The notes under the pieces were generated by a model. That model ran no database searches and was not told the origin of the DNA. It saw only the letters and a list, made by a program, of their open reading frames with translations. The position numbers were made by a program, and so were the translations under genes. Source: Streptomyces sp. 11x1 (GTDB taxonomy: Bacteria; Actinomycetota; Actinomycetes; Streptomycetales; Streptomycetaceae). From it: a stretch of DNA of 64,000 nt. The stretch lies in contig NZ_CP122458.1 of the NCBI RefSeq assembly GCF_032598905.1, forward strand, positions 1,984,001-2,048,000, written 5' to 3'. Below, piece after piece: positions 31,464-63,094 of the stretch. How positions within the stretch are numbered: the first letter of the stretch is position 1; each line of letters begins with the position of its first letter.

Positions 31464-31516
31464 ACTTCCGCTTAACGGTATTTACTTCCACGTAACGGAA
31501 TTCAACGTTCTGTTGA
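31464..31516. promoter_or_regulatory. Composite operator before allB
   Basis: Two 20-bp direct repeats (31464-31483, 31484-31503) share ACTTCC-N4-AACGG. The second contains the dyad TTCC-N7-GGAA (31486-31500). One base further is the inverted repeat TCAAC-N5-GTTGA (31502-31516). Read toward allB, TCAAC-GTTGA comes first, then TTCC-GGAA, in the same order as upstream of aceB (34015-34046). Confidence 0.7.
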
Positions 31517-31709
31517 AGGAGTTTTCACCCGCCTCGCGCCCCCGTCAAGGGCACACCCTCCACTCTGCCTCCCACGGCACGCATCCTGGTTGTTTTCACA
31601 AGACGGAATTACCATTCCACTGAGCAGAACTTAATGACGTACGAGCTCGTAGTCAACGAACTGCCGGGTAGGCTGCGACCTCGCCCGCCATCTCGAAAGG
31701 ACCGCGCCC

Positions 31710-32513
31710 GTGCCGATGTCCAGCGCCAGCGCCCACACGACCGACTCCGCCAAGTCGTCCTCCGGTGGTGTCCAGTCCCTCGAGCGCGCCTTCGATCTGC
31801 TGGAGCGGATGGCGGACGCCGGCGGCGAGGTGGGCCTGAGCGAGCTGTCCGCGAGCAGTGGCCTGCCGCTGCCGACGATCCACCGGCTGATGCGGACGCT
31901 GGTCGTCTGCGGCTACGTACGCCAGCAGTCCAACCGGCGCTACGCCCTCGGCCCGCGCCTGATCCGCCTCGGCGAGTCCGCGTCCCGGCTGCTCGGCACC
32001 TGGGCCCGCCCGTACCTGGCACGTCTCGTCGAGGAGACCGGCGAGACGGCGAACATGGCGCTGCTGGACGGCGACGAGATCGTCTACGTCGCCCAGGTGC
32101 CGTCCAAGCACTCGATGCGGATGTTCACCGAGGTGGGCCGCCGCGTCCTCCCCCACTCCACGGGGGTCGGCAAGGCGCTCCTCGCCGGCTTCCCGGCCGA
32201 CGAGGTGCGCGCGCTGCTGGCCCGTACGGGCATGCCGGCGGCCACGGACAAGACGATCACCACGCCCGAGGGCTTCCTGAGCGCCCTGGAGGACGTCCGC
32301 CGGCTGGGGTACGCGGTCGACGACAACGAACAGGAGATCGGCGTCCGCTGCCTCGCCGTCTCCGTCCCGGACTCCCCCACCGCCGCGGCTATTTCGATCT
32401 CCGGCCCGGCGGGACGCGTCACGGAGACGGCGACGGAACGAATCGTGCCGGTGCTGCAGCAGGTGGCGGTGGAACTGTCGGAGGCGCTGGCGAGTTCGGG
32501 CGCGGGCAGCTGA
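31710..32513 (+). CDS. allR: IclR-family regulator of allantoin use
   Basis: A 267-residue protein from GTG 31710 (AAAGGA eight bases upstream; ATG at 31716 is possible). The N-terminal winged helix is QSLERAFDLLERMADAGGEV and LSELSASSGLPLPTIHRLMR; the effector domain has RRVLPHSTGVGKALLAGF and DDNEQEIGVRCLAVSV, typical of IclR proteins that sense small acids such as glyoxylate or allantoate. It diverges from allB-alc. A regulator of this type, AllR, is known to repress allantoin genes in Streptomyces coelicolor. The ligand here is inferred. Confidence 0.92.
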   Translation: MPMSSASAHTTDSAKSSSGGVQSLERAFDLLERMADAGGEVGLSELSASSGLPLPTIHRLMRTLVVCGYVRQQSNRRYALGPRLIRLGESASRLLGTWARPYLARLVEETGETANMALLDGDEIVYVAQVPSKHSMRMFTEVGRRVLPHSTGVGKALLAGFPADEVRALLARTGMPAATDKTITTPEGFLSALEDVRRLGYAVDDNEQEIGVRCLAVSVPDSPTAAAISISGPAGRVTETATERIVPVLQQVAVELSEALASSGAGS

Positions 32514-32574
32514 GCGGCGGGCCGTCGGTCACGTCGGCGGGGGCGCCTTCGGGAACCTCGTCGGGTGCGGGTGC

Positions 32575-32691
32575 GTGGGCTGGTCGCGCAGTTCCCCGCG
32601 CCCTGAAGGATTCAGGCCCGGCGGGCCTGAAAAGGCTGGGGCGCAGCCCCGTCTTTTCAGGGGCGCGGGGAACTGCGCGACCAGCCCCCAC
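32575..32691. repeat. Long palindromic repeat, copy C
   Basis: Arms GGGCTGGTCGCGCAGTTCCC and the complement GGGAACTGCGCGACCAGCCC lie between the convergent allR and DUF5955-like genes. Arms are slightly unequal in length. The tail after it (to about 32760) matches the tail of copy B but lacks the 40-bp repeat. Confidence 0.9.
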
Positions 32692-32772
32692 CGAAGGGAC
32701 GTCTGGGGGTCAAAGGGGCGCAGCCCCTGAGGATGGGACGGGCAGGGGCGGCGGGGGCGGAAGAAGCGACGG

Positions 32773-33087
32773 TCACCGACGAGGCGGCTCCCCGAACAAC
32801 TCCACCGCCGTACGCACATCCGCCAACCCCTTCGCCAACGCACTCACCGACCCGATCGACCCCGCGATCAGCAACAGCGAGCGCCGCAACCGCGGAACCT
32901 CCGGCATCCCGGTGACGGCCATCGCCGCGAGCGCCGCCAGCTCGTCCTCCGCTATGCCCCGGTCGGGAAACTCCGCCGGATGCGCGGCCAGTTCACGACG
33001 CAGCCGGGACACGGCCGAGCTCAGCTCCGCCACTCTCGGATCCTCGTCACCGCCGGTCACTGGCCTCTGCCCCAAGCTCCGCAACAC
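32773..33087 (-). CDS. DUF5955-like small protein
   Basis: A 104-residue protein from GTG 33087, chosen because GGGGAGAGGG directly precedes it; ATG 33129 has no such site. The conserved part is DPRVAELSSAVSRLRRELAA, IAEDELAALAAMAV, then a hydrophobic SLLLIAGSIGSVSALAKGLA. It fits the Streptomyces DUF5955 family by memory of its sequence. No enzymatic motif is visible. The function is unknown. Confidence 0.75.
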   Translation of the reverse strand: MLRSLGQRPVTGGDEDPRVAELSSAVSRLRRELAAHPAEFPDRGIAEDELAALAAMAVTGMPEVPRLRRSLLLIAGSIGSVSALAKGLADVRTAVELFGEPPRR

Positions 33088-33323
33088 AGCCCTCTCCCCC
33101 CCTCGCCCACGCCTTCGTGCACGAGTCATGGCCGTGCGACGGCGCACGGCCGCCCGCCCCGTGGCGTCGGTCGGGCGCCGGGGGTGGCGCGGGCCAGTAA
33201 ACGCCAATCGGTGTGGCGAGCGCCACCACGGGGACCGAAATTCAGTCCCCGGGCACCACAAAGACGGCACCCGGTCCGTGGGGCTTCACGGGACGCCCCC
33301 GCCCGGTCGGGTATGCAGGGGAC

Positions 33324-33965
33324 ATGACGCACCACCAGTCCCGTGACACCGCCCCTGACCCGGCCCGCCCGGCGTCCGAGAGCGTGATCGTCGGCCTGCT
33401 GCTGGCCGCCGGTGGCGGGCGGCGCCTCGGCGGTCGCCCCAAGGCCCTGCTCACCCACCGCGGCCGCCCGTTGGTCGAACACGCGGTCGGCGTACTGCGG
33501 GCGGGCGGCTGCACCCGGGTCCATGTGGTCCTCGGCGCGGAGTCGTCGGCCGTGCGCGCCCGCGCCGACCTGCCCGGCTGCGTGCTGGTCGACAATCCGG
33601 ACTGGGCCGAGGGGATGGGCTCCTCGCTGCGAGCCGGACTGGAGTCACTGACGGGGACGGGAGCGGACGCCGCCCTGGTGTCGCTGGTGGACCAGCCGGG
33701 CATCGGGCCGGAGGCGGTGGCCCGCGTCCTCGCCGCGCACGGTTCGCGCGGGTCGCTCGTGGCGGCCGCGTACGACGGCGTGCGGGGCCACCCCGTCCTC
33801 TTCGGCGCCGACCACTGGGCCGGCATCACCGCCACCGCCACCGGCGACCGAGGGGCCCGCGTCTATCTGAAGGAGCACGGCGACACGATCACCCTCGTCG
33901 AGTGCGGGGACGTGGCACGGCCGTACGACATCGACACCGAGGCGGACCTCGTCCACCTTGAGTGA
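33324..33965 (+). CDS. MocA-like nucleotidyltransferase
   Basis: A 213-residue GT-A fold protein. It has the NTP motif GLLLAAGGGRRLGGRPKALL, DNPDWAEGMGSSLRAGL and LVSLVDQPG with the metal-binding Asp, then GVRGHPVLFG. This is the pattern of MocA, which adds CMP to molybdopterin for xanthine dehydrogenase-type enzymes, and of MobA relatives. The neighbouring purine-catabolic genes would make MocA sensible, but no xanthine dehydrogenase is in the window. ATG 33324 has AGGGGA upstream. Confidence 0.85.
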   Translation: MTHHQSRDTAPDPARPASESVIVGLLLAAGGGRRLGGRPKALLTHRGRPLVEHAVGVLRAGGCTRVHVVLGAESSAVRARADLPGCVLVDNPDWAEGMGSSLRAGLESLTGTGADAALVSLVDQPGIGPEAVARVLAAHGSRGSLVAAAYDGVRGHPVLFGADHWAGITATATGDRGARVYLKEHGDTITLVECGDVARPYDIDTEADLVHLE

Positions 33966-34014
33966 ACAGGGTGACACTCAGCGCCACCCTGCCTCGACCC
34001 GAAGAATCTCGACA

Positions 34015-34046
34015 TCAACAAAACATTGAACTTCCACCATGAGGAA
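34015..34046 (+). promoter_or_regulatory. Composite operator before aceB
   Basis: TCAAC-N5-ATTGA (34015-34029) and, two bases later, TTCC-N7-GGAA (34032-34046). Sequence, order and spacing match the site before allB in the direction of transcription; shared text is TCAACARAACRTTGAA then TTCC. AllR probably acts here too. Confidence 0.65.
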
Positions 34047-34152
34047 ACTACTATCCACAGCTCAGAAGGGTCCCGCCCATCCGGGGGCGCCCACAGCCCG
34101 ACCCGGGTCGACTGACACCCGGTGCCACGCCCGCTGAAGGAAGTGACAGCTC

Positions 34153-35793
34153 ATGTCCGCACCAGCGCCGTCCCCGCTGGCCATCGTCGACGCCGAGCCC
34201 CTGCCCCGTCAGGACGAGGTCCTCACCCCCGCCGCCCTCGCCTTCGTGGCCGAGCTGCACCGCCGGTTCACCCCCCGACGTGACGAGCTGCTGGCCCGCC
34301 GCGCGGAGCGGCGCGCCGAGATCGCCCGCACCTCCACGCTCGACTTCCTCCCGGAGACCGCCGCGATCCGCGCCGACGACTCCTGGAAGGTGGCCCCCTC
34401 CCCGGCCGCCTTGGACGACCGCCGTGTCGAGATCACCGGCCCCACCGACCGCAAGATGACGATCAACGCCCTGAACTCGGGGGCGAAGATCTGGCTCGCG
34501 GACTTCGAGGACGCCTCCGCGCCCACCTGGGAGAACGTGGTCCTCGGCCAGGTGAACATGGCCGACGCCTACACCCGGAACATCGACTTCACCGACGAGC
34601 GCACCGGCAAGTCCTACGCGCTGCGCCCGAACGAGGAGCTGGCGACGGTCGTCATGCGCCCGCGCGGCTGGCACCTCGACGAGCGCCACCTCGTCGACAG
34701 CGTCGGCGACGGCCGGGCGGTGCCCGGCGCGCTCGTCGACTTCGGGCTGTACTTCTTCCACAATGCCCAGCGCCTGCTGGACCTCGGCAAGGGCCCGTAC
34801 TTCTACCTCCCCAAGACGGAGTCCCACCTGGAGGCCCGCCTCTGGAACGAGGTGTTCGTCTTCGCGCAGGACCACCTCGGCATCCCCCAGGGCACGGTCC
34901 GCGCCACCGTCCTCATCGAGACGATCACGGCCGCGTACGAGATGGAGGAGATCCTCTACGAACTCCGCGACCACGCCTCGGGGTTGAACGCGGGCCGCTG
35001 GGACTACCTCTTCTCCATCGTGAAGAACTTCCGTGACGGCGGCGCCAAGTTCGTCCTCCCGGACCGCAACGCGGTGACGATGACCGCCCCGTTCATGCGC
35101 GCGTACACCGAACTCCTCGTCCGCACCTGCCACAAGCGCGGCGCGCACGCGATCGGCGGCATGGCCGCCTTCATCCCGTCGCGCCGCGACGAGGAGGTCA
35201 ACAAGGTCGCGTTCGAGAAGGTCAAGGCCGACAAGGACCGTGAGGCGAACGACGGCTTCGACGGCTCCTGGGTGGCCCACCCTGACCTGGTCCCGATCGC
35301 CATGGCCTCCTTCGACGCCGTCCTCGGCGACAAGCCCCACCAGAAGGACCGCCTCCGCGACGACGTCGACGTCAAGGCCGGCGATCTGATCGCCGTCGAC
35401 TCCCTCGACGCCAGGCCGACGTACGCCGGACTCGTCAACGCCGTCCAGGTCGGCATCCGTTACATCGAGGCCTGGCTGCGCGGCCTCGGCGCCGTCGCCA
35501 TCTTCAACCTGATGGAGGACGCGGCCACCGCCGAGATCTCCCGCTCCCAGATCTGGCAGTGGATCAACGCGGGCGTCGAGTTCGAGCGCGACGGACAGAC
35601 GGTGAAGGCCACGCCGGAGCTGGCCCGCGAGGTCGCCGCCGAGGAACTCGCCAACCTGCGGGCCGAGTTGGGCGAGGAGGCGTTCGCCGCCGGGCACTGG
35701 CAGCAGGCCCACGACCTCCTGCTGGAGGTCTCCCTCGACGAGGACTACGTCGACTTCCTGACCCTGCCGGCGTACGAGCAGCTCAAGGGCTGA
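34153..35793 (+). CDS. aceB: Malate synthase A
   Basis: A 546-residue enzyme; length and motifs match the A-type family: [76 protein letters not shown] and [19 protein letters not shown]. It joins glyoxylate and acetyl-CoA to malate. Beside the allantoin genes it uses the glyoxylate released from ureidoglycolate. GGAAGTGA precedes ATG 34153. An AllR-like composite operator lies about 110 bases upstream. Its stop is one base from the stop of the convergent SelW-like gene. Confidence 0.97.
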
Positions 35794-35794
35794 G

Positions 35795-36082
35795 CTACGA
35801 CCCGCCGATCCTGTCCGAGTGGCCCAGGGACCTTCCCGGGGCCACTCGGTCGCGTACGGCCTGCTTCACGGCGGTGGGCTCGGGGAAGCCCTGGTCACGG
35901 CGGTCCCAGACGACCTCGTCGCCCACCCGGACCACGAAGACGCCGCCCGTGCCGGGCTTGAGGGACAGCTCCGTCAGTTCGGTCTCGAAGGTCGTCAGCA
36001 GCTCCTGGGCCAGCCAGGCGGCCCGGGGCAGCCAGCGGCACTGGGTGCAGTACTCGATCTCGACCCGCTGTGTCCGCGTCAT
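35795..36082 (-). CDS. SelW/SelT-like (Rdx family) thioredoxin-fold protein
   Basis: A 95-residue protein from ATG 36082, overlapping the stop of the HipA-like gene as ATGA. The redox pair is CTQC in VEIEYCTQCRWLPRAAWLAQ at the start; GTGGVFVVRVGDEVVWDRRDQGFPE completes the Rdx fold. In selenoproteins W and T one Cys is selenocysteine; here both are Cys. It is a small redox protein of unknown partner. The tail (VAPGRSLGHSDRIGGS) is encoded by a terminator hairpin. Confidence 0.88.
   Translation of the reverse strand: MTRTQRVEIEYCTQCRWLPRAAWLAQELLTTFETELTELSLKPGTGGVFVVRVGDEVVWDRRDQGFPEPTAVKQAVRDRVAPGRSLGHSDRIGGS
35815..35849 (+). terminator. aceB terminator inside the convergent gene
   Basis: CCGAGTGGCCC, a 13-base loop and the exact complement (35839-35849). 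It is 22 bases past the aceB stop and within the coding end of the SelW-like gene. Confidence 0.75.
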
Positions 36083-36993
36083 CCCAGGTGCACCGACCAA
36101 TCCTGTTCCGCCGCCGGCTTGCCGTGCAGGTCGGGTACCCGCTTCAGCCAGTCCGGTCGGCCTCGCTGTGTTCTCGCCGCGCGGAGGGCCTCCTCGGCGG
36201 CGAGTTCCTCCCGGGTGGGGAAGTCGGTGGGGAGCCAGTCGGCGGAGGCGGCCACGCGCGCGTGGAGGTAGCGCACATAGGCGTCGCGGACCTCGTCGGG
36301 CGAGGTGAAGCCGTCCTCGACGGGCAGCCAGCCGTCCGGGACCTCCGCGACGATGCGCCGCAGCAGGTCCTCGGTCACCTTCGGCGCGAGCTCCGCGTCG
36401 GCCGCGCGCACGTCCGGGGCGTAGTGGCCGAGGGCGTGGTGGCGGAAGTCGTAGGCCTTGGTGGGGTCCGAGGCGTCCCAGCGGTGGTGGAAGACGAGGG
36501 CCGCGCCGTGGTCGATCAGCCAGAGGCGCGGGGGCGCGATGCCGAGGGTGGGCCAGATCATGAGGTTCGAACTGTGCACGGTGCGGTCGACGTTGACCGT
36601 GAGGGCGTCGAGCCAGACGATCCGGCCGGCTTCCAGCGGGTCGACGCGGAACTCCCGCGCGATCTCCGGGGTGAAGTCCGCGGCGCCCGGCAGATAGTCC
36701 ATGCCGAGGTTGAGGCCGGCGCTCGCCGCGTGCAGTTCCCGCACCTCCTGGTGCGGCTCGCTCTCGGCGATCACCGGGTCGAAGCGCGCCAGGACCAGCT
36801 CCGGGAACCGCATCCCGAGCGCCCGTGCCAGCTCCCCGACGATCACCTCGGCGACCAGCGCCTTGCGGCCCTGCGCCGAGCCCGTGAACTTGACGACATA
36901 GGTGCCCAGGTCGTCGGCCTCGACGACGCCGGGCACGGAGCCACCGGCACGCAGGGGGGCGACGTAGCGGGTCGCGGTGACCTCTCTCAACAT
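36079..36993 (-). CDS. HipA-like kinase family protein
   Basis: A 304-residue protein from ATG 36993 (GGGAG upstream). It resembles the HipA-like kinases common in actinobacteria: GTYVVKFTGSAQGRKALVAE (nucleotide-contact Lys), RIVWLDALTVNVDRTVHSSN (catalytic loop D-x-N) and PRLWLIDHGAALVFHH (metal-binding Asp). No HipB antitoxin is next to it, so it is probably not a toxin. The coupled partner is a SelW-like redox protein. The substrate is unknown. Confidence 0.8.
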   Translation of the reverse strand: MLREVTATRYVAPLRAGGSVPGVVEADDLGTYVVKFTGSAQGRKALVAEVIVGELARALGMRFPELVLARFDPVIAESEPHQEVRELHAASAGLNLGMDYLPGAADFTPEIAREFRVDPLEAGRIVWLDALTVNVDRTVHSSNLMIWPTLGIAPPRLWLIDHGAALVFHHRWDASDPTKAYDFRHHALGHYAPDVRAADAELAPKVTEDLLRRIVAEVPDGWLPVEDGFTSPDEVRDAYVRYLHARVAASADWLPTDFPTREELAAEEALRAARTQRGRPDWLKRVPDLHGKPAAEQDWSVHLG

Positions 36994-37057
36994 CTTCCGC
37001 TCCCGGCCTTCGGTATGAAGGCACATAGTAACCAGGCGCCGTCGCCCGCCCGGCGGA

Positions 37058-37086
37058 CCCCGGTCACGGCGTCGCCGTGACCGGGG
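37058..37086 (-). terminator. Hairpin after the IF-1 paralogue
   Basis: CCCCGGTCACGGC, loop GTC, and the exact complement (37074-37086), 35 bases past the stop of the IF-1 gene. Confidence 0.85.
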
Positions 37087-37120
37087 CTCGGGATCGGCTA
37101 CCGGCGGGTGCCGACCGCGG

Positions 37121-37345
37121 CTAGTTCCGGTACCGGAACACGATCCGGCCGCGGGTCAGGTCGTACGGCGGGAGTTCCACCAGCACCCGGTCCTCCAGCA
37201 TGATCTTGATGTAGTTCTTGCGGATCTTCCCGCTGATGTGGGCGAGCACCTGGTGGCCGTTCTCCAGCTCCACGGTGAGCATGGCGCTGCGCAGGCACTC
37301 GACGACCCTGCCCTCGACCTCGATGACGTTCTTGTTCCTCGTCAT
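37121..37345 (-). CDS. infA: Translation initiation factor IF-1, second copy
   Basis: A 74-residue S1-type OB-fold protein: [40 protein letters not shown] and [14 protein letters not shown] are typical of IF-1. It differs from the usual Streptomyces IF-1 (which begins MAKKQGAIEIEG and has [15 protein letters not shown]), and it is not in a ribosomal operon, so it is probably a paralogue. Its ATG overlaps the stop of the acetyltransferase gene. It would bind the ribosomal A site during initiation. Confidence 0.92.
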
Positions 37346-38133
37346 CGCACCAGCTCCAGGTTGCTGCCGGCCCGCCGGGCGCCGACGCTTTCGAACAGCG
37401 CCGAGGCGGCGTGGTTGGACTCCTGCACCTCGGTCCACGCCTCGGTGAACCCGGCGCGGTGCAGGGTGTCCAGCGCGTGCGCGAGCAGCGCTCGCGCGAT
37501 GCCCCGGCGCCGCTCGCCGGCCCGGACCGCGAGCAGCCCGATCCGCGGCCGGATCGGGATCACCACCCGGATCAGCCCGAGGTAGCGGTCCGGTGCCGCG
37601 GCCACCGTGTACGTCGACGGGTCGACGACGGTGTCGCCGTCGGGGCCGTGCACCACCTCCGCGGGCATCGAATGCCACCCGACGGTCGCCTCGACCTCGT
37701 CACGGATCGCGCGGTCCACCGCCCGCAGCAAAGCCTCGTCCGCCCGACCGGCGGGGACGATCGTCACGCCGGGAGGCGGCAGGACCTCGTCGAGCCCTGT
37801 GGCCCGCGGGTCGGTCGGCACGACGTACTCCCACTCGCGGCGCCGGATCGTGAATCCGGCCCGCCGCAGGCGGGCCGTCAGCTCCACGTCGGCCTCGTCC
37901 ACCACGGTGTGCAGCGGCGCCGGCAGGTCCGCCGACATCGCCTCGGCGAGCCGGTCGAAGGGCTCGTCGTGCCAGGCGTCGATGCTGACGTACAGCCGTC
38001 CGTCGGGCCGGTGCCGTGCGTGCCCGCGGCCGACCACCAGGTCGTCTTCCAGTGCGTGCCATTGCCCGTCCGCGACGCGCGTGATCATCACGGCGTTCTC
38101 GCCCGGACCGGCAATGCGGGGTTTCGCTCTCAT
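37342..38133 (-). CDS. GNAT-family acetyltransferase
   Basis: A 263-residue protein from ATG 38133, chosen for the GGAGGGA upstream. The C-terminal half is a GNAT domain: [20 protein letters not shown] (acetyl-CoA loop RxxGxA) and [20 protein letters not shown]. The N-terminal half ([40 protein letters not shown]) is like a degenerate GNAT repeat. It probably acetylates an amine of a small molecule or protein. It is translated together with the IF-1 paralogue, a pairing that raises the question of ribosome-linked use. Confidence 0.88.
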
Positions 38134-38255
38134 CGGAGTCTCCCTCCAGGAGTGCCTCGATCTCAGGCGCTCCCGGCGACACCGAACGTCAGCCGCCGGA
38201 CCGTGACGAGTTGAGGGAGCACCCACGGGTGACTGGGTTCACGGGGCTCACCTCC

Positions 38256-41066: not shown

Positions 41067-41120
41067 GGGCGCGCAACCTTTCTGCGGCAGCGTCCGCAAA
41101 GAGCACAGATCCCTTGACGC

Positions 41121-42293: not shown

Positions 42294-42298
42294 CACTC

Positions 42299-53388: not shown

Positions 53389-53432
53389 GGCGCGGGACGC
53401 CGTCGGGCGCCGCGGACTCGTAGCCTGGGGGC

Positions 53433-54032: not shown

Positions 54033-54084
54033 TCTCCGTATCCGTAGGCGTGACCCATGGCCGGTTCGGGTGAGGGAGGGTGCC

Positions 54085-54741: not shown

Positions 54742-54849
54742 CGGATCGAGCCGGGGTGAGGCGGGGGTCGGGGCGGGGCGAGGCGGGGTCGACTGAGCAA
54801 GCGCTCAGTACGCTAGGGGGCGTTCCGTTCGCCTCAGGTAGGGGGAGTC

Positions 54850-55272
54850 ATGGCCGAGCCGTTTTACGTTCCGGTGACCGTGCGCGGGTACGAGACCGAT
54901 GTGCAGGGGCACCTGAACCAGAGCGTGTACCTCCAGTACGGCGAACACGCGCGGTGGTCTCTGCTGCAGGCCGCCGGGATACGTCAGGCCGATCTGCTGG
55001 CGAAGGGGGTCGGACCCGTTGCGCTGGAGACGACGGTCCGCTACCGGCGCGAGCTGCTGGCCGGTGACGAGGTCGAGGTGACGTGCGTGTTCGTGTGGGG
55101 CGAGGGCAAGACGTTCCGCATCGAGCAGACCGTACGCAGGACGGACGGCACGGTGGCCGCCGAGATCACGGGTGTCGGCGGGCTGATGGATCTGAGGATC
55201 CGCAAGCTGGTGGCCGACCCCCGGGAGTACTTCCGGGTCCTGGCGACGGACCCCACCCTGTTCGGGCTGTAG
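54850..55272 (+). CDS. Acyl-CoA thioesterase, hotdog fold (4HBT type)
   Basis: A 140-residue protein: RGYETDVQGHLNQSVYLQYG carries the active-site Asp of the 4-hydroxybenzoyl-CoA thioesterase family (usual DxxGHxNN/xxxY), here with Gln-Ser in place of Asn-Asn. LLAGDEVEVTCVFVWGEGKT and AAEITGVGGLMDL follow. It would hydrolyse an acyl-CoA; the natural substrate is unknown. GGGGGAG lies before the ATG. Confidence 0.9.
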   Translation: MAEPFYVPVTVRGYETDVQGHLNQSVYLQYGEHARWSLLQAAGIRQADLLAKGVGPVALETTVRYRRELLAGDEVEVTCVFVWGEGKTFRIEQTVRRTDGTVAAEITGVGGLMDLRIRKLVADPREYFRVLATDPTLFGL

Positions 55273-55358
55273 GCCCGGCGACGGACCGCCCCGCCGACCG
55301 GGGCTCGACAGGGTCGCGGTCCCGGCGTCGCCGACCCGGGCTCGACGAGACGACGGGT

Positions 55359-55406
55359 CCCGGCGTCGTGGGCCGAGGGCTGGCGCTCCCGGTCCACGAC
55401 GCCGGG
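55359..55406. terminator. Hairpin between convergent thioesterase and peroxidase genes
   Basis: CCCGGCGTCGTGG and the exact complement at 55394-55406 enclose 22 bases. A second, weaker pair lies just upstream (55310-55350). Confidence 0.65.
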
Positions 55407-55426
55407 GACTCACGGCCGGTGGCCGC

Positions 55427-57115
55427 TCAGCCCAGCGGGTTCAGCAGCTCCGGGTCGTTCTCGAAGGCGAAGAGCAGCAGGTCCGCCATGGTGAACCTGC
55501 CCTTCCGGTGGGACGGGAGGCTCGGGCGCCAGCCCGGGTGCTTCACGATCGACCTCCGGCTGCCCTCCATCGCCCGGTGGAAGACCTCCGCCACGAGGGT
55601 GCCGCCGACCCCGGTGAGGCTGCCGGGGCGCGCTTCGTTCACCTCGGCCTCGCGCAGCACGTAGAACCAGAGCGGGGTGTGCTCCACGAGCTGGGTGCGC
55701 TCGGCGTCGGTGAAGCCCTCCAGCGCGGCTCCGCCGTTGCCGCGCAGGATCTGGTCCTCCGTCAGGGGCTTGAAGCCCATCTGGGCGGCCAGTTGCGGCC
55801 CGGTGGCCAGCTCGACCATCGAGGCCCGCACCAGGTTGCGGAACGCGAGGTTGCGCTGGATGGGCGGCGGGGCCGGGCGGCCCCGGCCGTCGAAGGTGCC
55901 GGTGGGCAGCGTGGACAGGGGGTCGACGAGCAGGGTGTCCAGCCGCTTGGCCACGTTGAACTCGCGCTCCGGCACGACCAGGTCGTCCCGGCCGATCTCG
56001 CCGAAGTCGAACAGCCGGCGGAAGTCGACGATCCAGTTGCTCGGCAGCCGCAGGTTCTCGCCGGAGTCCGGGTCGTCGAGGTCGCTCAGGTCGTCCGGTC
56101 CCGGGGTGAGGTTCCCCGCCGTCCCGCTGAAGCGGAACAGCAGCCCGAGCGAGGCGATCGGACCGGGGCCGCCCGCGCGGAACACGCTGTTCCACTGGTA
56201 GGCCCCGCGCACCATGCTGTGGCCGAGGCGGTAGGCCGCCACCGAGAACTCGATGGGCATCGTCGGGAAGTCGCCGGGGCGGACGTACCCGGGGCGTTCG
56301 AAGTGCCTGCGTCCGCGTTCGAAGACCCGCTCGACGATGTCCGGGTCGACGATGCGCGGCAGGAAGTCGGTGCGCAGCACCCACTGGTAGTGCTTCACGA
56401 CGAGCTCCCGGGCGGCCTGGAACAGCCGGTGCTCGGGCACTCCGCGGTCGGCGAGGTGGTCGACGACCCGGTTGTGGAAGCGGATGAAGGCCAGGTGGAG
56501 CTGGCCGACCGCGAGGTTCTCGTCGTTGCGTGTGTCCGGGATGAGCGGGGCGCGCTGGTCGGCCCGGGTGCCGCCGGCCGCCTCGCCGGCCCTCGGCAGA
56601 TCGAAGCCCTCGCGGTCGATGTTGGACGTCGACTCGGGCGGGAAGTCCACGCCGAGCGTCGTGCCCATGCGCAGGCGGCCGCCGGGCTCGTAGAAACGGG
56701 CGCTGCCCGCGTGGCGCGGGCCCATGCCGTAGAGCGAGTCCAGGTCGAGGGCGGGGCTGCGCCCCTGCACCAGGTCCTCGACCGGGACCGGCTCGCCCAG
56801 GCCCACCTGGGTGCGGTCCAGGGTCAGGTCGTGGTCGACGAACTGACCGAGATACGTGAACCCTGCCGGGATCGACGCGCCGGGCTCCCCCGAGTCCGGG
56901 TCGGCGCCGCCGGTGCCCGTGGTCATGGCCACGGCCAGCTTGCCGAGCAGTTCCTCGTCGAGCTGGACCCCCTTCTCACCGAACCGGGAGAAGCGGAAGG
57001 CCATCTGCTGCTCGGTCGCGCTCGGCACGCGCGCGACCGCCGCCCCCTTCTCGAACTCCAGGATCCGGCCCTCGTTGACGACGTAGTAGGTCTCGCGATG
57101 GTGTCGGTGCACCAT
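55427..57115 (-). CDS. Animal-type haem peroxidase
   Basis: A 562-residue protein from ATG 57115 (GGGGAC upstream). It carries the marks of the peroxidase-cyclooxygenase superfamily: distal His in FTYLGQFVDHDLTLDRT (about residues 91-96), TRNDENLAVGQLHLAFIRFH, and the proximal His in YRLGHSMVRGAYQWN near residue 295. There is no signal peptide. Bacterial members oxidise halides or phenols with H2O2. Its role here is unknown. Confidence 0.92.
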   Translation of the reverse strand: MVHRHHRETYYVVNEGRILEFEKGAAVARVPSATEQQMAFRFSRFGEKGVQLDEELLGKLAVAMTTGTGGADPDSGEPGASIPAGFTYLGQFVDHDLTLDRTQVGLGEPVPVEDLVQGRSPALDLDSLYGMGPRHAGSARFYEPGGRLRMGTTLGVDFPPESTSNIDREGFDLPRAGEAAGGTRADQRAPLIPDTRNDENLAVGQLHLAFIRFHNRVVDHLADRGVPEHRLFQAARELVVKHYQWVLRTDFLPRIVDPDIVERVFERGRRHFERPGYVRPGDFPTMPIEFSVAAYRLGHSMVRGAYQWNSVFRAGGPGPIASLGLLFRFSGTAGNLTPGPDDLSDLDDPDSGENLRLPSNWIVDFRRLFDFGEIGRDDLVVPEREFNVAKRLDTLLVDPLSTLPTGTFDGRGRPAPPPIQRNLAFRNLVRASMVELATGPQLAAQMGFKPLTEDQILRGNGGAALEGFTDAERTQLVEHTPLWFYVLREAEVNEARPGSLTGVGGTLVAEVFHRAMEGSRRSIVKHPGWRPSLPSHRKGRFTMADLLLFAFENDPELLNPLG

Positions 57116-57431
57116 GTGTGTCCCCGTTCTGTCCCCCGGCTCCGCGAACGGCCACAACCGGACTTACTGGTTCTCCCCGCCGGTACCGGCCCTCACCGGA
57201 CGCAAAGCGATCATTCAGATAAATCCCTGTTTTCCGACAACGCGTCGGTCGCGAGGAGCGGTTCCCGAACCAGGAAATCTACTCATATTGGTGTAGGAAG
57301 CGGCCGTTCACGTCGGGTTCTCCCCCGTGTGGCCGCGTGTCCGCGCACAAGTGGGGTGTCGGCGGGTATTCCTCCCACGGCGTACCCCCACCCATCGCCC
57401 CCCACCGCCCCCACCGCACCCCGGAGACACC

Positions 57432-59630
57432 ATGCCGCTCGCCCGCCGTGCCCTGCTCACCGCGTTCGCCGCCGGTTCCACCGCCGCCTGCACCTCGGCC
57501 CGCGCGATTCCCTCGGACGACGCGCCCCGCACCGACAAGGCACAGCGCACGGCCTCGGTGGCGGCCAGAAGGCTGCTGCCGGACCACTGGCGGCAGATCA
57601 CCTTCCTGGAGGGCAGGGAGAAGGACACCTTCCGCGTGTCGGGGAGCACGGGCCGCATCACCGTCGCCGGTGACACGCCGGCCACGCAACTCACCGGCCT
57701 CAACTGGTACTTGAAACACGTCGCGTACGCCGACATCAACTGGGCGGGCGAGCAGACGGACCTCCTGCCGCGCGAGCTGCCGGGCCTCGACCAGGCGGTG
57801 AGCCGCCGGGCGAACGTCGTCCACCGCTTCGCCCTCAACGACACCAACGACGGCTACACCGGCGCGTACCTGGACTGGGGGTACTGGGAGCGCGAGCTGG
57901 ACGTGCTGGCGCTGCACGGCTACAACGAGGTCCTCGTCTACGCGGGCGCGGACGCGCTGTACCACCGGGTGTTCCAGGAGTTCGGGTACGGCGAGGAGGA
58001 GCTGCGGGCGTGGGTGCCGGGCCCGGCCCACCAGCCGTGGTGGCTGCTGCAGAACCTCTCCGCCTTCCCCTCCCCCGTCTCCCGGCAGCTCCTGGATGCG
58101 CGGGCCGTCCTCGGCCGCCGGATCGCCGACCGGACCCGGGAGCTGGGGATGACACCGGTGTTCCCCGGTTACTTCGGGACGGTCCCGGCGGGCTTCGCGG
58201 AGCGGGTCCCAGGGGCACGGACCGTGCCGCAGGGCGAGTGGATGGGCTTCGCGCGCCCCGACTGGCTGGACCCGCGCGGGGCCGAGTTCGCCACGGTCGC
58301 GGCGGCCTTCTACCGGGTGCAGGACGAGATGTTCGGTCCGTCGACGCTGTACAAGATGGATCTGCTGCACGAGGGCGGCGACCCGGGCGACGTCCCCGTG
58401 GCCGACGCGGCGAAGGGCGTCGAGCGCGCGCTCCAGCGGGCGCGTCCGGGGGCCACCTGGGTGATCCTCGGCTGGCAGCACAACCCGCCGCGGGCGATCG
58501 TCGACGCCGTCGACAAGGAGCGCATGCTCGTCGTCGACGGCCTCTCCGACCGCTTCCCCACGGTCACCGACCGCGAGGCCGACTGGGGCGACACCCCGTA
58601 CGCCTTCGGTTCCATCTGGAACTTCGGCGGGCACACCGCGCTCGGCGCCAACACCCCCGACTGGGCCGCGCTGTACGAGAAGTGGCGCACGAAGGACGGC
58701 AGCCGGCTCCAGGGGATCGCCCTGATGCCGGAGGCGGCGGACAACAACCCGGCCGCCTTCACCCTGTTCTCGGAACTCGCCTGGCGGGAGGGCGAGTTGG
58801 ACCTGAAGACCTGGTTCGCCGAGTGGGCGCACGCCCGGTACGGCGCCCTCGATCCGCACGCCGGGGCCGCCTGGGACATCCTGCGCCGCACCGCGTACGG
58901 CACCACACGCGCCGACTCCTGGAGCGAGGGTGCCGACGGCCTGTTCGGCGCCCGGCCGGCCCTGAACGTCGTACGGGCCGGACGCTGGTCCCCCAAGCAA
59001 CTCCGCTACAGCGCGGCCGAGTTCGAGCATGCCCTGGACGAACTGCTGCTGGTGCGGACCGGCTTGCGGGTCTCGGCGGCGTATCGCCGCGACCTCCTCG
59101 ACGTGGCCCGCCAGGCCCTCGCCAACCGCAGCCGGGTGATGCTGCCGCAGATCAAGGCGGCCTACGACGCCGAGGACGCGGCCCTCTTCGCGAGGTCGAG
59201 CGCGGACTGGCTGTCGCTCATCGATCTGCTGGACGAGCTGGTGGCCACCGACTCCCGCCATCTGCTGGGTCGTTGGGTGGCACAGGCCCGCTCCTGGGGC
59301 GCGGACGCCGCCGAGCGGGACCAGTTGGCGTACGACAGCCTGTCGCTGCTGACCGTGTGGGGAACACGGAAGGGAGCGGACACGGGGCTGCGGGACTACG
59401 CCAACCGGGAGTGGGCGGGACTGGTCGGTGGGCTGTACCGGTTGCGCTGGTCGACGTACTTCGAGGAGCTGAGGGTCGCGCTGGCCGCGGGCCGGGCACC
59501 GGCGAAGATCGACTGGTTCGCCCTGGAGGACCGCTGGGCGCGGAACCCGGGGACCCTCGCGACCGAGCCGACCGGCGACACGTACACGGTCGCGACCCGG
59601 GTCCGGGACCGGCTCGCGGCCCTCTCCTGA
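57432..59630 (+). CDS. GH89 alpha-N-acetylglucosaminidase, exported lipoprotein
   Basis: A 732-residue protein from ATG 57432 (GGAGA upstream). An Arg-containing signal (LARRALLTAFAAGSTAACTS) with a Cys suggests a lipoprotein. The three parts of GH89 are seen: an N-terminal domain with TQLTGLNWYLKHVAYADINW, the barrel with WERELDVLALHGYNEVLVYA, MGFARPDWLDP and WVILGWQHNPPRAIVDAV, and the helical end with ALMPEAADNNPAAFTLFSEL. It is related to human NAGLU and removes terminal alpha-GlcNAc from glycans outside the cell. Confidence 0.94.
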   Translation: MPLARRALLTAFAAGSTAACTSARAIPSDDAPRTDKAQRTASVAARRLLPDHWRQITFLEGREKDTFRVSGSTGRITVAGDTPATQLTGLNWYLKHVAYADINWAGEQTDLLPRELPGLDQAVSRRANVVHRFALNDTNDGYTGAYLDWGYWERELDVLALHGYNEVLVYAGADALYHRVFQEFGYGEEELRAWVPGPAHQPWWLLQNLSAFPSPVSRQLLDARAVLGRRIADRTRELGMTPVFPGYFGTVPAGFAERVPGARTVPQGEWMGFARPDWLDPRGAEFATVAAAFYRVQDEMFGPSTLYKMDLLHEGGDPGDVPVADAAKGVERALQRARPGATWVILGWQHNPPRAIVDAVDKERMLVVDGLSDRFPTVTDREADWGDTPYAFGSIWNFGGHTALGANTPDWAALYEKWRTKDGSRLQGIALMPEAADNNPAAFTLFSELAWREGELDLKTWFAEWAHARYGALDPHAGAAWDILRRTAYGTTRADSWSEGADGLFGARPALNVVRAGRWSPKQLRYSAAEFEHALDELLLVRTGLRVSAAYRRDLLDVARQALANRSRVMLPQIKAAYDAEDAALFARSSADWLSLIDLLDELVATDSRHLLGRWVAQARSWGADAAERDQLAYDSLSLLTVWGTRKGADTGLRDYANREWAGLVGGLYRLRWSTYFEELRVALAAGRAPAKIDWFALEDRWARNPGTLATEPTGDTYTVATRVRDRLAALS

Positions 59631-59718
59631 CGGACCCGGCGCGTGCGGCCCGCCCGGGACGGCCCGCCCGGGACACCGTTCCGGGGCGCGCAGGCGCGTG
59701 AGCGCCCCGGAGACGGCT

Positions 59719-59745
59719 GCCGTGGACCTCACCGAGGTCCACGGC
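59719..59745. terminator. Bidirectional terminator
   Basis: GCCGTGGACCTC, loop ACC, exact complement (59734-59745), between the convergent GH89 and 8-oxoguanine deaminase genes. Confidence 0.85.
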
Positions 59746-59785
59746 TCTGGCCGAGGGCCGTCCCCCTCGACCAGAGCTCAGCAGG

Positions 59786-61165
59786 TCAGGCCCCGGCGGC
59801 GATCCGCGCCAGCCGCCGCGCCTCCTGCCGCGTCGAGCGGGCGATCGCGTCCTCGTCGACGTGCAGCAGGCGGTTGTTCGCAACGATCTGCCGGCCGTTC
59901 ACGAACGACGCCGTCACCGGGGCCGCCGCGCCGAGGACCAGGGCGGCCACCGGGTCGGCGATCGAGGCGTGCGCGAGCGTGTCGAGCTTCCAGAGGACCA
60001 GGTCGGCGAGCTTGCCGGGCTCCAGGGAGCCGATCTCCCGCGCCCGGCCCAGGACCTGGGCGCCGCCGAACGTGCCGAGCCGGAGGGCCTGGCGGGCGGT
60101 GAGGGCGGCCTCGCGGTGGGCGCCGAGGCGGTTGATCAGGAGCGCGTTGCGCAGCTCGGTGTGGAGTTCTCCGGACTCGTTGGAGGCCGTGCCGTCGACG
60201 CCGAGGCCGACCGGGACGCCGGCCGCCAGCATGTCGGGGACCCGTGCGATCCCCGCCGCCAGCCGGGCGTTGGACGACGGGCAGTGGGCGACACCCGTCT
60301 TCGTACGGGCGAAGGCCTCGATGTCGGAGTCGTTCATATGGACGCAGTGGGCCATCCACACGTCCTCGCCGAGCCAGCCCGTGGACTCGAAGTAGTCGGT
60401 CGGGCCCATGCCGAACAGCTCGTGGCAGAACTTCTCCTCCTCGACCGTCTCCGAACCGTGGGTGTGCAGCCGCACCCCGAGGCGACGGGCCAACTCGGCT
60501 CCCTCACGCATCAGTTCGGTGGAGACCGAGAACGGCGAGCAGGGCGCGACGGCCACCTGGGTCATCGCGCCGAAGGAGGCGTCGTGGTGCTCCTTGACGG
60601 TGGCCTCGGTCGCCGCGAGGGCGCCTTCGAGGCTCTCGACGGCGAAGTCCGGGGGCAGGCCGCCGTCCTTCTCTCCGCGGTCCATGGAGCCGCGGGCCAG
60701 GGTGAAGCGGACGCCCGTCTCGCGGGCGGCGCGGATGATCGCTCCCGACAGGTCGCCCGAGTCCTTCGGGTAGACGTAGTGGTGGTCCATCGCGGTGGTG
60801 ACGCCGCCGCGGGCCATCATCGCCAGGGAGCCCTGGGCCGCCGCGTGGACCATCTGCTCGTCGATGCGGGCCCAGGTCGGGTAGAGCGCGACGAGCCAGT
60901 CGAAGAGGTTGTGGTCGGTGGCCAGGCCCCGGGTGATCCACTGGTAGTAGTGGTGGTGCGTGTTGACCAGGCCGGGGGTCACGAGGTGGCCTGTCGCGTC
61001 GATACGGCGTACGACGTCCGCCAGGTCCTCGGGGGCCCGCCCCCTGCCGAGCGACTCGATGCGGTCGCCGGCGATGACGAGATGGCCGGTGGCGTACTCG
61101 GTGTCGTCGGCGTCCACGGTCGCGATCGAACAGTTCTCGATCACGATGCGCTGAACTGATGTCAT
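59786..61165 (-). CDS. 8-oxoguanine deaminase
   Basis: A 459-residue amidohydrolase. Metal ligands: GLVNTHHHYYQWITRGL, RLHTHGSET, MAHCVHMNDSD and the Asp in GLGVDGTASNESGEL. The family form and the place directly after uricase (10-base gap) fit 8-oxoguanine deaminases, which turn 8-oxoguanine into uric acid. That gives a substrate for the next enzyme in the operon. Other deaminases of the ATZ/TRZ family (guanine, isoguanine) cannot be excluded by sequence alone. Confidence 0.88.
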   Translation of the reverse strand: MTSVQRIVIENCSIATVDADDTEYATGHLVIAGDRIESLGRGRAPEDLADVVRRIDATGHLVTPGLVNTHHHYYQWITRGLATDHNLFDWLVALYPTWARIDEQMVHAAAQGSLAMMARGGVTTAMDHHYVYPKDSGDLSGAIIRAARETGVRFTLARGSMDRGEKDGGLPPDFAVESLEGALAATEATVKEHHDASFGAMTQVAVAPCSPFSVSTELMREGAELARRLGVRLHTHGSETVEEEKFCHELFGMGPTDYFESTGWLGEDVWMAHCVHMNDSDIEAFARTKTGVAHCPSSNARLAAGIARVPDMLAAGVPVGLGVDGTASNESGELHTELRNALLINRLGAHREAALTARQALRLGTFGGAQVLGRAREIGSLEPGKLADLVLWKLDTLAHASIADPVAALVLGAAAPVTASFVNGRQIVANNRLLHVDEDAIARSTRQEARRLARIAAGA

Positions 61166-61175
61166 GGTGCGCCCT

Positions 61176-62069
61176 TCAGAGGTTTGTCAGGTCCGCCGGG
61201 ATCCTCGCCTCGCACCCGTCCCGCAGGACGGTGGCCTCGATCAGGCCGTAGGGGCGGTCGGCGGCGAAGTACACCTCGTTGTCGTTCTTCAGCCCGAAGG
61301 GGGCCAGGTCCACCAGGAAGTGGTGCTTGTTCGGGAGGGAGAAGCGGACCTCGTCGATCTCCGCGCGGTGGTCGATGATCCGTACGCCCATCTGGTAGAG
61401 GGTCTGCTGGAGCGAGAGCGAGTACGTCTCGGCGAAGGCCCGGAGCAGGTGCTGCTTCACCTGCTCGTAGGAGGTCTCCCAGTCGGGCATCGGCTGCTCG
61501 TCGTCGGTCCAGTTGAAGCGCCAGCGGCCGGAGACCTCGGTGGCGAGGATGCGGTCGTGCGCCTCGGGCAGGGTCGTGTACTTGTCCTTGACGTAACCCC
61601 AGAACTCGGAGTCGGTCGAGTTCATGACCGTGAGGTCCTTGAGACCGGAGACGACCTCCCACGACGAGCCGTCGTGGGTGATCTGGGTCAGCCGGGTCTC
61701 CTGGCCCTGCCGGACGAAGGAGTGCGCGCCCTCGCCGCCGTGCTCGATGCGCTCCCAGGCGTACTGCTCGATACGGATACGGGCCCGGTGGATGGCCGGC
61801 TGGGAGGTCACGAAGTGCCGGGCGAGATGGATGCCGAACTGTTCGGCGGACTCGATGCCGTGCTCCTTGGCGAAGGCGTACACGGTGTTCTTGGTGGTGT
61901 CCGTCGGCAGGACGTTCGCGTTCGACCCCGAGAGGTGGACCTCGTCCATGTCGCCGCTCAGCGAGACCGAGACGTTGAGGTCCTTGATGTGGTGGGTGGC
62001 GCCGTCCCGCGTGATGCGTACGACGCGGTTCTCGGCCTTGCCGTACTGGTTGGGTCCAAGGATGGGCAT
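61176..62069 (-). CDS. uox: Urate oxidase (uricase)
   Basis: A 297-residue cofactor-free oxidase. Two T-fold halves carry the catalytic Lys (NQYGKAENRVVRI) and Thr (LPTDTTKNTVYAFAKEHGI), then FVTSQPAIHRARIRIEQYAW and FSLPNKHHFLVDLAPFG. It oxidises uric acid to 5-hydroxyisourate with O2. The next gene upstream is its partner HIU hydrolase (two bases away). No peroxisomal tail, as expected in bacteria. Confidence 0.96.
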   Translation of the reverse strand: MPILGPNQYGKAENRVVRITRDGATHHIKDLNVSVSLSGDMDEVHLSGSNANVLPTDTTKNTVYAFAKEHGIESAEQFGIHLARHFVTSQPAIHRARIRIEQYAWERIEHGGEGAHSFVRQGQETRLTQITHDGSSWEVVSGLKDLTVMNSTDSEFWGYVKDKYTTLPEAHDRILATEVSGRWRFNWTDDEQPMPDWETSYEQVKQHLLRAFAETYSLSLQQTLYQMGVRIIDHRAEIDEVRFSLPNKHHFLVDLAPFGLKNDNEVYFAADRPYGLIEATVLRDGCEARIPADLTNL

Positions 62070-62071
62070 AG

Positions 62072-62485
62072 CTAGCTCCCTCGATAAACGGAGTAGCCGA
62101 ACGGGTTGAGCAGCAGCGGTACGTGGTAGTGCTCGCCGGGCGTCACCGTGAAGGTGATGACGACCTCGGGGAAGAACACGGCACCGCTGTCCCGAATCGC
62201 GGGGGCGTCCTGCTGCGCATCGGCTTGCTTGTGCACGGTCTGTGCGGCGTTCCGGGCGAGGTACGGCTCGACCTCGAAGTCGAGTCGCACCTGTGTGGTG
62301 CCCTCCGGCAGGGCCGGGAGGTCCTTGCAGCGGCCGTCGGCGTCGGTCGCCGAGCCGCCGAGCACCCGCCAGTCCGCTTCCCGTCCGGAGCGGGCGGCGA
62401 CGTGGACGGCGACGCCCGCGGCGGGGCGGCCGACGGAGGTGTCCAGGATGTGCGTGGACACCGAGGCGGTCGTGCTGGTGCTCAT
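62072..62485 (-). CDS. uraH: 5-Hydroxyisourate hydrolase
   Basis: A 137-residue transthyretin-like protein. STHILDTSVGRPAAGVAVHV is the N-terminal signature and the C-terminus is the diagnostic YRGS (GYSVYRGS). HIU is hydrolysed to OHCU. The His and Arg of the active site are in place. Its start overlaps the uraD stop by four bases (ATGA). Confidence 0.96.
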   Translation of the reverse strand: MSTSTTASVSTHILDTSVGRPAAGVAVHVAARSGREADWRVLGGSATDADGRCKDLPALPEGTTQVRLDFEVEPYLARNAAQTVHKQADAQQDAPAIRDSGAVFFPEVVITFTVTPGEHYHVPLLLNPFGYSVYRGS

Positions 62486-63015
62486 GATCGGGCTTCCTCT
62501 TCGACGTCGACGAGCCGGGCCAGGCGGATGCGGTTGATCTTGCCCAGTTCGGTGCGGACGATCTCGCGTTCCCGCTCCGGCGCGTTGCCGATCCGGTCCC
62601 GGACCGCGTCGCGCATCTGCTCGCCGGTCCGGCCGGTGGCGCAGATCAGGAAGACATGGCCGAACTTCTCCTGGTAGGCCAGGTTCAGTTCGAGCATCTC
62701 CGCCCTGAGCTCGTCGGAGGCGCCGGCCATGCCGCGCTGCTCCCGGGCCGAGGTCGGGTCGCCCGGCTTCGGGCGGCCGATCGGGGGGTGCCCGGCCATG
62801 GCCTGCGTCAGGTCTTCCTCGCCCAGTTCGGCCATGGCCGCGTCACTGGCGGCGAGGAGGTCCTCGACGGCGGCGTAGGGGCGGCCGGCGAGGAGTCTGC
62901 GCCCCCATGCGTCCGAGGCGCACGCCTCGTGGAGCGCGGCGACGGCCACGTGCTCCTCCAGGGCGTTGAAACGGGCGAGGCCCGGTGTCGAGGAACGCGA
63001 AGTACGCGAAGTCAC
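62482..63015 (-). CDS. uraD: OHCU decarboxylase
   Basis: A 177-residue all-helical protein from GTG 63015. The catalytic His is in AGHPPIGRPKPG; the substrate loop KFGHVFLICATGRTGEQM and LGKINRIRLARLVD are typical. It converts OHCU to S-allantoin, which AllB then opens. First gene of the uricase operon. The repeat TCAAC-N5-GTTGA lies 65 bases upstream. Confidence 0.95.
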   Translation of the reverse strand: MTSRTSRSSTPGLARFNALEEHVAVAALHEACASDAWGRRLLAGRPYAAVEDLLAASDAAMAELGEEDLTQAMAGHPPIGRPKPGDPTSAREQRGMAGASDELRAEMLELNLAYQEKFGHVFLICATGRTGEQMRDAVRDRIGNAPEREREIVRTELGKINRIRLARLVDVEEEARS

Positions 63016-63079
63016 GGGAGCCTCCGTGCCGTGGTGCTGGACTGGCTACGGCAAGCTAACGCCCCGCGACGACATTGCG

Positions 63080-63094
63080 TCAACAGTTTGTTGA
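63080..63094. promoter_or_regulatory. Inverted repeat before the uricase operon
   Basis: TCAACAGTTTGTTGA has 6-bp arms and matches the repeat before allB (TCAAC-GTTCT-GTTGA) and aceB (TCAAC-AAAAC-ATTGA). No TTCC-N7-GGAA follows here. It is a probable operator of the same regulator. Confidence 0.6.

What the first reader, a model, noticed from the sequence alone, without database searches (positions are those of the whole stretch)
31464..63094. Shared operator links urate, allantoin and glyoxylate genes
TCAAC-N5-RTTGA occurs upstream of allB (31502-31516), aceB (34015-34029) and uraD (63080-63094). Before allB and aceB it is followed, in the direction of transcription and after one or two bases, by TTCC-N7-GGAA. 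On the coding strands the common text is TCAACARAACRTTGAA then TTCC. AllR (IclR family) is encoded beside two of the sites. This suggests one regulon that runs from uric acid to malate, with the uricase operon lacking the second half of the site.
Basis: partly seen in the sequence, partly recalled or inferred. Interest (0 to 1): 0.75.

Follow-up and report, generated by a model that had tools for sequence, protein, structure and literature searches.

The report
Two operators in Streptomyces urate catabolism
The repeated DNA site before the uric-acid, allantoin and glyoxylate genes is real and conserved, but it is probably read by an unstudied regulator encoded beside the uricase genes rather than by AllR, whose likely site next to it marks a second, overlapping set of genes.

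Summary
Confirmed: TCAAC-N5-RTTGA stands exactly at the three stated places and is conserved before orthologues in other Streptomyces (allB 77 of 79, aceB 72 of 74; uraD 30 of 30 loci fetched). Corrected: it is probably not one AllR operator with two halves. TTCC-N7-GGAA is a separate element that also precedes hyi-glxR and gcl, which lack an exact TCAAC site; at allB it is absent within 25 bp in 20 of 77 loci that keep TCAAC.

A natural experiment separates the candidate binders. Of 8 Streptomycetaceae that lack the HTH_22 regulator encoded beside uraD (63127-63495) but have AllR, 7 have no exact TCAAC site at allB or aceB, while TTCC stays before aceB in 7. With both regulators, 14 of 15 chosen genomes keep an exact site. 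Two genomes without detectable AllR carry TCAAC before uraD.

Best reading: the HTH_22 protein, with a Thiamine_BP-like partner (63492-63743) that is fused to it in other actinobacteria, represses uraD, allB and aceB; AllR acts through TTCC on allB, aceB, hyi and gcl. Binding, sign of control and effector are inferred.

The parts
31502..31516 (-). Operator 1 (TCAACAGAACGTTGA on the allB strand) before allB
   Evidence: Exact match; exact in 77 of 79 named allB upstreams
31486..31500 (-). Operator 2 (TTCCGTTACGTGGAA on the allB strand) before allB
   Evidence: Exact match; within one mismatch and at a 1-bp gap in 48 of 77 named loci
31466..31480 (-). Possible second, imperfect operator-2 copy, 20 bp from the first
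   Evidence: Read by eye; not tested further
34015..34029 (+). Operator 1 (TCAACAAAACATTGA) before aceB; its right half overlaps the predicted -35
   Evidence: Exact match; exact in 72 of 74 named aceB upstreams
34026..34054 (+). Predicted aceB promoter TTGAAC-N17-TACTAT
   Evidence: Conserved in the consensus of 72 loci; a prediction
34032..34046 (+). Operator 2 (TTCCACCATGAGGAA) before aceB, inside the predicted promoter spacer
   Evidence: Exact match; at a 2-bp gap in 73 of 73 named loci that have the TCAAC site within one mismatch
63080..63094 (-). Operator 1 (TCAACAAACTGTTGA on the uraD strand) before uraD; its right half overlaps a predicted -35 TTGACG
   Evidence: Exact match; exact in 30 of 30 named loci fetched
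63127..63495 (-). HTH_22 regulator, proposed reader of operator 1
   Evidence: PF13309, 75 bits against a cut-off of 29.6; presence follows operator 1
63492..63743 (-). Thiamine_BP-like small protein, overlapping the start of the HTH_22 gene; proposed partner
   Evidence: PF01910 just below cut-off, 23.0 against 24.9 bits; adjacent in 33 of 34 HTH_22 loci
62482..63015 (-). uraD, OHCU decarboxylase
   Evidence: PF09349
62072..62485 (-). HIU hydrolase
   Evidence: PF00576
61176..62069 (-). uricase
   Evidence: TIGR03383 above cut-off
59786..61165 (-). 8-oxoguanine deaminase-like protein, last gene of the apparent urate operon
   Evidence: NF006055 above cut-off; operon membership inferred from spacing
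30098..31465 (-). allB, allantoinase (the true start is probably near 31435, by eye)
   Evidence: TIGR03178 above cut-off
28917..30047 (-). allantoicase, downstream of allB
   Evidence: TIGR02961 above cut-off
31710..32513 (+). allR, IclR-family regulator, proposed reader of operator 2
   Evidence: PF01614 and PF09339
34153..35793 (+). aceB, malate synthase A
   Evidence: TIGR01344 above cut-off

Best explanation
Two separate operators make two overlapping regulons. Operator 1, about TCAACARANNRTTGA, is bound by the HTH_22 protein encoded just upstream of uraD, most likely as a dimeric repressor: it overlaps the predicted -35 of uraD and aceB and lies just after a weak predicted promoter of allB. 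Its signal, probably urate or a product close to it, would be sensed with the help of the Thiamine_BP-like partner protein. Operator 2, TTCC-N7-GGAA, often in pairs 21 bp apart, is bound by AllR and controls allB, aceB, hyi-glxR and gcl. So uraD would answer to the HTH_22 system alone, hyi and gcl to AllR alone, and allB and aceB to both. Shown here: positions, conservation, separability, co-occurrence with the HTH_22 gene, gene pairing and fusion. Inferred: who binds, repression, partnership and effector.
For: Operator 1 is conserved before all three genes. Elements 1 and 2 vary independently. Without HTH_22 but with AllR, an exact operator 1 at allB or aceB is found in 1 of 8 genomes; with both, in 14 of 15; Fisher p 2.5e-4, not corrected for kinship. 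Operator 2 within one mismatch stays before aceB in 7 of those 8. HTH_22 genomes without detectable AllR (G243, G249) carry exact operator 1 before uraD. All 17 family genomes with HTH_22 that were examined have it before uraD. In G087 of another family the identical 15-mer lies between an HTH_22 gene (54% identical over the matched part) and uricase. In G467, which lacks HTH_22, the uraD -35 and -10 remain while the other half-site is eroded. All 14 genomes with gcl and all 12 with hyi have AllR.
Against: No binding data. G274 lacks HTH_22 and uricase yet keeps an exact operator 1 before aceB; G247 has HTH_22 but no site before aceB and none within one mismatch before the allB near its HTH_22 gene; nor have allB of G246 and G243, or G253. 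Exact sites at aceB alone give 8 of 15 against 1 of 8, p 0.09. The 23 genomes are related and not corrected for kinship. HTH_22 and the Thiamine_BP-like gene go together, so co-loss does not say which one matters. TTCC-N7-GGAA is common by itself (108 places, control 47), and a match within one mismatch somewhere in about 370 bp is not rare by chance. G467 lost both elements at aceB. That the allB promoter lies upstream of its site rests on a weak match.
Confidence: 0.7

Rival explanations
1. One reading: AllR binds TCAAC-N5-RTTGA with TTCC-N7-GGAA as its second half, in one regulon from urate to malate.
For: AllR is encoded between the two double sites; spacing at aceB is constant (2 bp in 73 of 73 loci).
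Against: Seven of 8 genomes with AllR but no HTH_22 have no exact TCAAC site at allB or aceB; G243 and G249 without detectable AllR carry it before uraD; hyi and gcl have TTCC without exact TCAAC.
Confidence: 0.12
2. Operator 1 is bound by a third regulator that tends to be lost together with the HTH_22 gene.
For: Co-loss cannot single out one gene.
Against: The HTH_22 gene lies directly before the uraD site and the same 15-mer sits between HTH_22 and uricase in another family, G087. In G467 uraD, HIUase and uricase, allB, allR and aceB remain while the HTH_22 gene is not found, which narrows the candidates. The SenRc site predicted before SCO6209 is a different sequence (PMC4991794, passages).
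Confidence: 0.12
3. The HTH_22 protein binds operator 1 but as an activator.
For: A site just upstream of and touching the -35 also suits a class II activator.
Against: The aceB promoter is near consensus; at allB the site appears to lie after the promoter; G467 keeps the uraD genes and core promoter without the regulator.
Confidence: 0.2

Closest known systems
AllR allantoin regulon of Streptomyces coelicolor (Navone et al. 2015, 10.1128/AEM.02098-15; title seen in reference lists; paper not held, content recalled)
   Same: Same regulator, allantoin and glyoxylate genes; recalled: AllR represses them, including hyi, and is released by allantoic and glyoxylic acid.
   Different: The uricase operon, a second operator and a second regulator are added here. 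Which motif Navone et al. reported for AllR I could not check.
E. coli IclR and AllR operators (motifs in PMC8222616, passages)
   Same: A/T-rich palindromes built of GGAA and TTCC blocks, used by IclR-family proteins.
   Different: Here the blocks stand in the opposite order (TTCC-N7-GGAA), often in pairs 21 bp apart.
HTH_22 (PF13309) regulators, YheO/DauR-like (family lore recalled)
   Same: C-terminal HTH_22 domain.
   Different: No PAS_6 domain was detected; instead a Thiamine_BP-like partner is encoded next to it or fused to it.
Known bacterial urate-responsive regulators (MarR-type HucR/UrtR, PucR; recalled)
   Same: Local regulators of urate catabolism with palindromic operators.
   Different: Different protein family: only HTH_22 was found in the candidate.

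Membership tests
AllR operator (for operator 1, TCAAC-N5-RTTGA) | Present where AllR and its target genes are present | tested here: not met
   No exact site at allB or aceB in 7 of 8 genomes with AllR but without HTH_22
AllR operator (for operator 1, TCAAC-N5-RTTGA) | Bound by AllR | not testable with these tools
   No binding data
AllR operator (for operator 2, TTCC-N7-GGAA) | Shared by the allantoin and glyoxylate genes | tested here: met
   aceB 73 of 73, hyi 13 of 13, gcl 8 of 16 loci, with 6 of the other 8 close downstream of hyi; allB 48 of 77 next to the TCAAC site
AllR operator (for operator 2, TTCC-N7-GGAA) | Bound by AllR | not testable with these tools
   No binding data; Navone et al. 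2015 not held
HTH_22 regulators | PF13309 domain above cut-off | tested here: met
   75 bits against 29.6
YheO-type HTH_22 regulators | N-terminal PAS_6 sensor domain | tested here: not met
   Only HTH_22 found at E up to 0.001
Thiamine_BP (MTH1187/DUF77) | PF01910 above cut-off and DUF77 fold | tested here: inconclusive
   Window protein 23.0 against 24.9 bits; fused relative L143 41.2 bits, whose model matches DUF77 structures, best E 2e-5
Thiamine_BP (MTH1187/DUF77) | Binds thiamine or a similar ligand | not testable with these tools
   No ligand data
MarR-type urate regulators | MarR domain | tested here: not met
   No MarR match in the HTH_22 protein at E up to 0.001

The most novel reading that the evidence does not exclude
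The Thiamine_BP-like protein and the HTH_22 protein form a split sensor-repressor, one chain in other actinobacteria, that senses urate or an adjacent intermediate with a thiamine-binding-type fold: a kind of purine sensor I found no description of. Through allB and aceB it couples uric-acid use to carbon recovery independently of AllR.
Probability: 0.4. Interest if true: 0.65.

Novelty: new variant of a known kind. Interest (0 to 1): 0.52.

Why it matters
It replaces a one-regulator picture of purine breakdown in Streptomyces with two overlapping regulons, proposes a regulator and operator for the urate operon, and gives a widespread, apparently unstudied actinobacterial protein type (Thiamine_BP plus HTH_22) a testable function. 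The AllR branch matters because hyi has been linked to antibiotic production in S. coelicolor (recalled from Navone et al. 2015).

Tried and rejected
A wider TCAAC regulon: the other exact places in the genome were read only as 255-bp stretches (7 loci) and by ORF listing for one (L006); several look coding and none was recognised as a purine promoter, so no wider regulon is claimed. The search with up to 2 mismatches gave 77 and 89 matches on the two strands against 39 and 33 for the reversed control; its list was cut and the places were not annotated. TTCC-N7-GGAA alone is not specific: 108 places against 47 for the control. SenR as binder of the uraD site was dropped because the predicted SenRc site is another sequence (PMC4991794, passages). 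Literature searches for a urate regulator of this type or for the AllR motif showed none in the listings; the library lacks most subscription papers, so this is weak evidence of absence. Of the 11 genomes without HTH_22, three (G325, G490, G267) have no AllR at the threshold and were not examined for sites. The third protein (L187) was an off-frame stretch and says nothing. Distant HTH_22 matches (E 4e-6 to 1e-7) in G298, G325, G274 and G407 were taken as paralogues without further test. Whether the other members of genus g101 keep HTH_22 near AllR, as G246 does, was used only informally; the stretch where it would lie in G274 has none of the query genes (L253).
Full report
Observation. The exact pattern has 11 distinct places in the 10.67-Mb genome; three or more in 64 kb is unlikely by density alone (P about 5e-5). 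The organism is a Streptomyces by its nearest AllR locus (L012, Streptomyces sp. MNU76, 99%).

Conservation. In 80 named AllR loci (the best 80 of 480 confirmed) allB was found in 79 and aceB in 74. The site is exact before allB in 77 of 79 (misses L032 and L079) and before aceB in 72 of 74 (L017 one mismatch, L068 two). UraD was then sought in 40 of those 80 records; 39 were held, all 39 had it, loci were fetched for the best 30, and all 30 have an exact site before uraD. Among 15 Streptomyces HTH_22 loci of a separate draw, uraD lies beside it in 14, and all 14 have the exact site (own genome included).

Promoter geometry. In the consensus of 72 aceB loci the right half-site belongs to a near-consensus promoter, TTGAAC-N17-TAGTAT (two of its bases vary), and TTCC-N7-GGAA fills its spacer. 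At uraD it belongs to TTGACG, followed after 17 or 18 bp by TTAGCT in 29 of 30 loci. At allB the site lies just after TTGACG-N17-AAnACT, a weak promoter match. These are predictions.

Two elements, not two halves. TTCC-N7-GGAA also precedes hyi-glxR and gcl, outside the window at about 2058 and 2085 kb of contig 1. In 13 hyi loci (own genome included) 12 have two copies, each within one mismatch, exactly 21 bp apart, and one (G087) has a single copy; none has an exact TCAAC site in the 300 bp scanned and one (L232) has it with one mismatch. In 16 gcl loci (own included) 8 have TTCC within one mismatch at promoter positions, six of them as pairs 21 bp apart; none has TCAAC within one mismatch. 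Of the 8 without, one (L251) has a match inside what reads as coding sequence; six (G236, G237, G238, G239, G245, G087) lie close downstream of hyi on the same strand and the other two are in G094, which was not searched for hyi. At allB the TTCC element is 1 bp away in 48 of 77 named loci, 15-25 bp away in 9 and absent in 20. In G087 the uricase promoter carries TCAACAAACTGTTGA and, further downstream, TTCCGCATCACGGAA. The elements thus vary independently.

Which regulator reads which. The HTH_22 gene was found in 17 of 197 genomes of the class, 15 of them among the 16 of the genus, and in 286 of 297 Streptomycetaceae. Of the 11 without it, 8 have AllR at E up to 1e-50. Among these 8, an exact TCAAC site at allB or aceB is found in G274 only. 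In the other seven the best aceB match has three or more mismatches, and the four that have allB in the locus show two to four mismatches there. TTCC within one mismatch stays before aceB in 7 of 8, not G467. For comparison I chose 17 of the 286 genomes with HTH_22, 13 from other genera and 4 small Streptomyces; 15 have AllR, and 14 of these have an exact site at allB or aceB. The exception is G247. Fisher p is 2.5e-4 without correction for kinship.

Results that weaken this. At aceB alone exact sites are 8 of 15 against 1 of 8, p 0.09; six of the seven others have two mismatches, five of them as a GCCACA-type variant directly before the TTCC element. G274 keeps an exact aceB site although HTH_22 and uricase are not found. 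allB has no site within one mismatch in G246, G247 and G243 and none in G253, so allB is not always in the set. The genomes without HTH_22 come from five genera, three of which (plus the window's own genus) also contain genomes with it, which points to several losses, but no tree was built.

The reverse case. G243 and G249 have HTH_22 but no AllR at the threshold and carry an exact site before uraD. In G249 aceB has no TCAAC within one mismatch and only a G+C-rich TTCC-N7-GGAA match. All 17 chosen family genomes with HTH_22 have an exact site before uraD (16; G328, whose regulator lies about 4 kb away). The four genomes without HTH_22 that keep the urate operon (G467, G192, G242, G254) have no exact site before uraD. 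In G192, and perhaps G242 and G254, remnants resembling the Thiamine_BP-like gene lie near uraD (by eye), so the site may have gone in the same deletion; these are not independent evidence. G467 is cleaner: its uraD promoter keeps TTGACG and TTAGCT while the other half-site is eroded (one mismatch), and at allB the conserved upstream stretch remains while the site reads TCGACAGCACGGCGA. The four small genomes with the gene (4.8-6.0 Mb) keep a site, so genome size alone does not explain the loss.

The partner. The gene overlapping the start of the HTH_22 gene resembles the Thiamine_BP (MTH1187/DUF77) family, just below Pfam's cut-off. It lies beside HTH_22 in 33 of 34 loci; the exception is the distant L144. 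In L143 the two are one 190-residue protein with both domains above cut-off. A search with it gave 1025 homologues among the 7996 candidates scored; 114 of the best 120 carry both Pfam domains in one chain, with names from Pedococcus, Phycicoccus, Knoellia, Marmoricola and Amycolatopsis. The predicted model of the fused protein (mean pLDDT 86.6, pTM 0.50) matches DUF77/MTH1187-type structures in all 14 hits with E up to 0.001. That this part senses a ligand for the HTH_22 part is inferred from fusion and adjacency.

Mechanism. A repressor whose operator overlaps the -35 (uraD, aceB) or lies after the promoter (allB) fits best; activation is not excluded. AllR as a repressor released by allantoic and glyoxylic acid, acting also on hyi, is recalled from Navone et al. 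2015, which is not held; a citing paper mentions AllR and allantoic acid (PMC11438217, passages). A table row in PMC6629963 (one passage) shows SCO6209, SCO6247 and SCO6248 changing in the same direction, consistent with shared control but no proof.

Verdict. The one-operator, one-regulator interpretation is replaced by two operators and, most likely, two regulators.

Noticed in passing
L006 1501-1543 (G000:C1:4461433-4461475): Two exact TCAAC-N5-GTTGA places 28 bp apart directly before an ORF (L006 1547-2305) that looks Clp_N-like by eye; probably another regulator's sites.
   Followed up: no
L143 1168-1740; P0001-P0120: Fused Thiamine_BP plus HTH_22 proteins are common in actinobacteria and carry no functional name beyond domain names in the listing.
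   Followed up: partly
L172 2133-2161 (G241, near a contig end): A second exact TCAAC site at 2147-2161, close to the contig end; its gene was not identified.
   Followed up: no
L222, L230, L232 upstream of hyi: Degenerate TCAAC-like sequence before hyi in some genomes (one mismatch in L232, more in the others by eye), so hyi may join operator 1 in some lineages.
   Followed up: partly
L238, L239, L245, L248-L252 (gcl loci): Gcl comes in a 76-88% and a 49-55% identical form in related genomes.
   Followed up: no
Second UraD match in the 39 named genomes: Each of the 39 genomes has a second UraD-like protein, 34-42% identical, elsewhere in the genome.
   Followed up: no
63800-64000: The window end reads like the end of a phage-type integrase on the minus strand (by eye only).
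   Followed up: no
35795-37024: ORF next to aceB with a SelW/Rdx-family domain at its C-terminal end.
   Followed up: no
57262-57276: A third exact TTCC-N7-GGAA in the window, G+C-rich and not assigned to a promoter.
   Followed up: no
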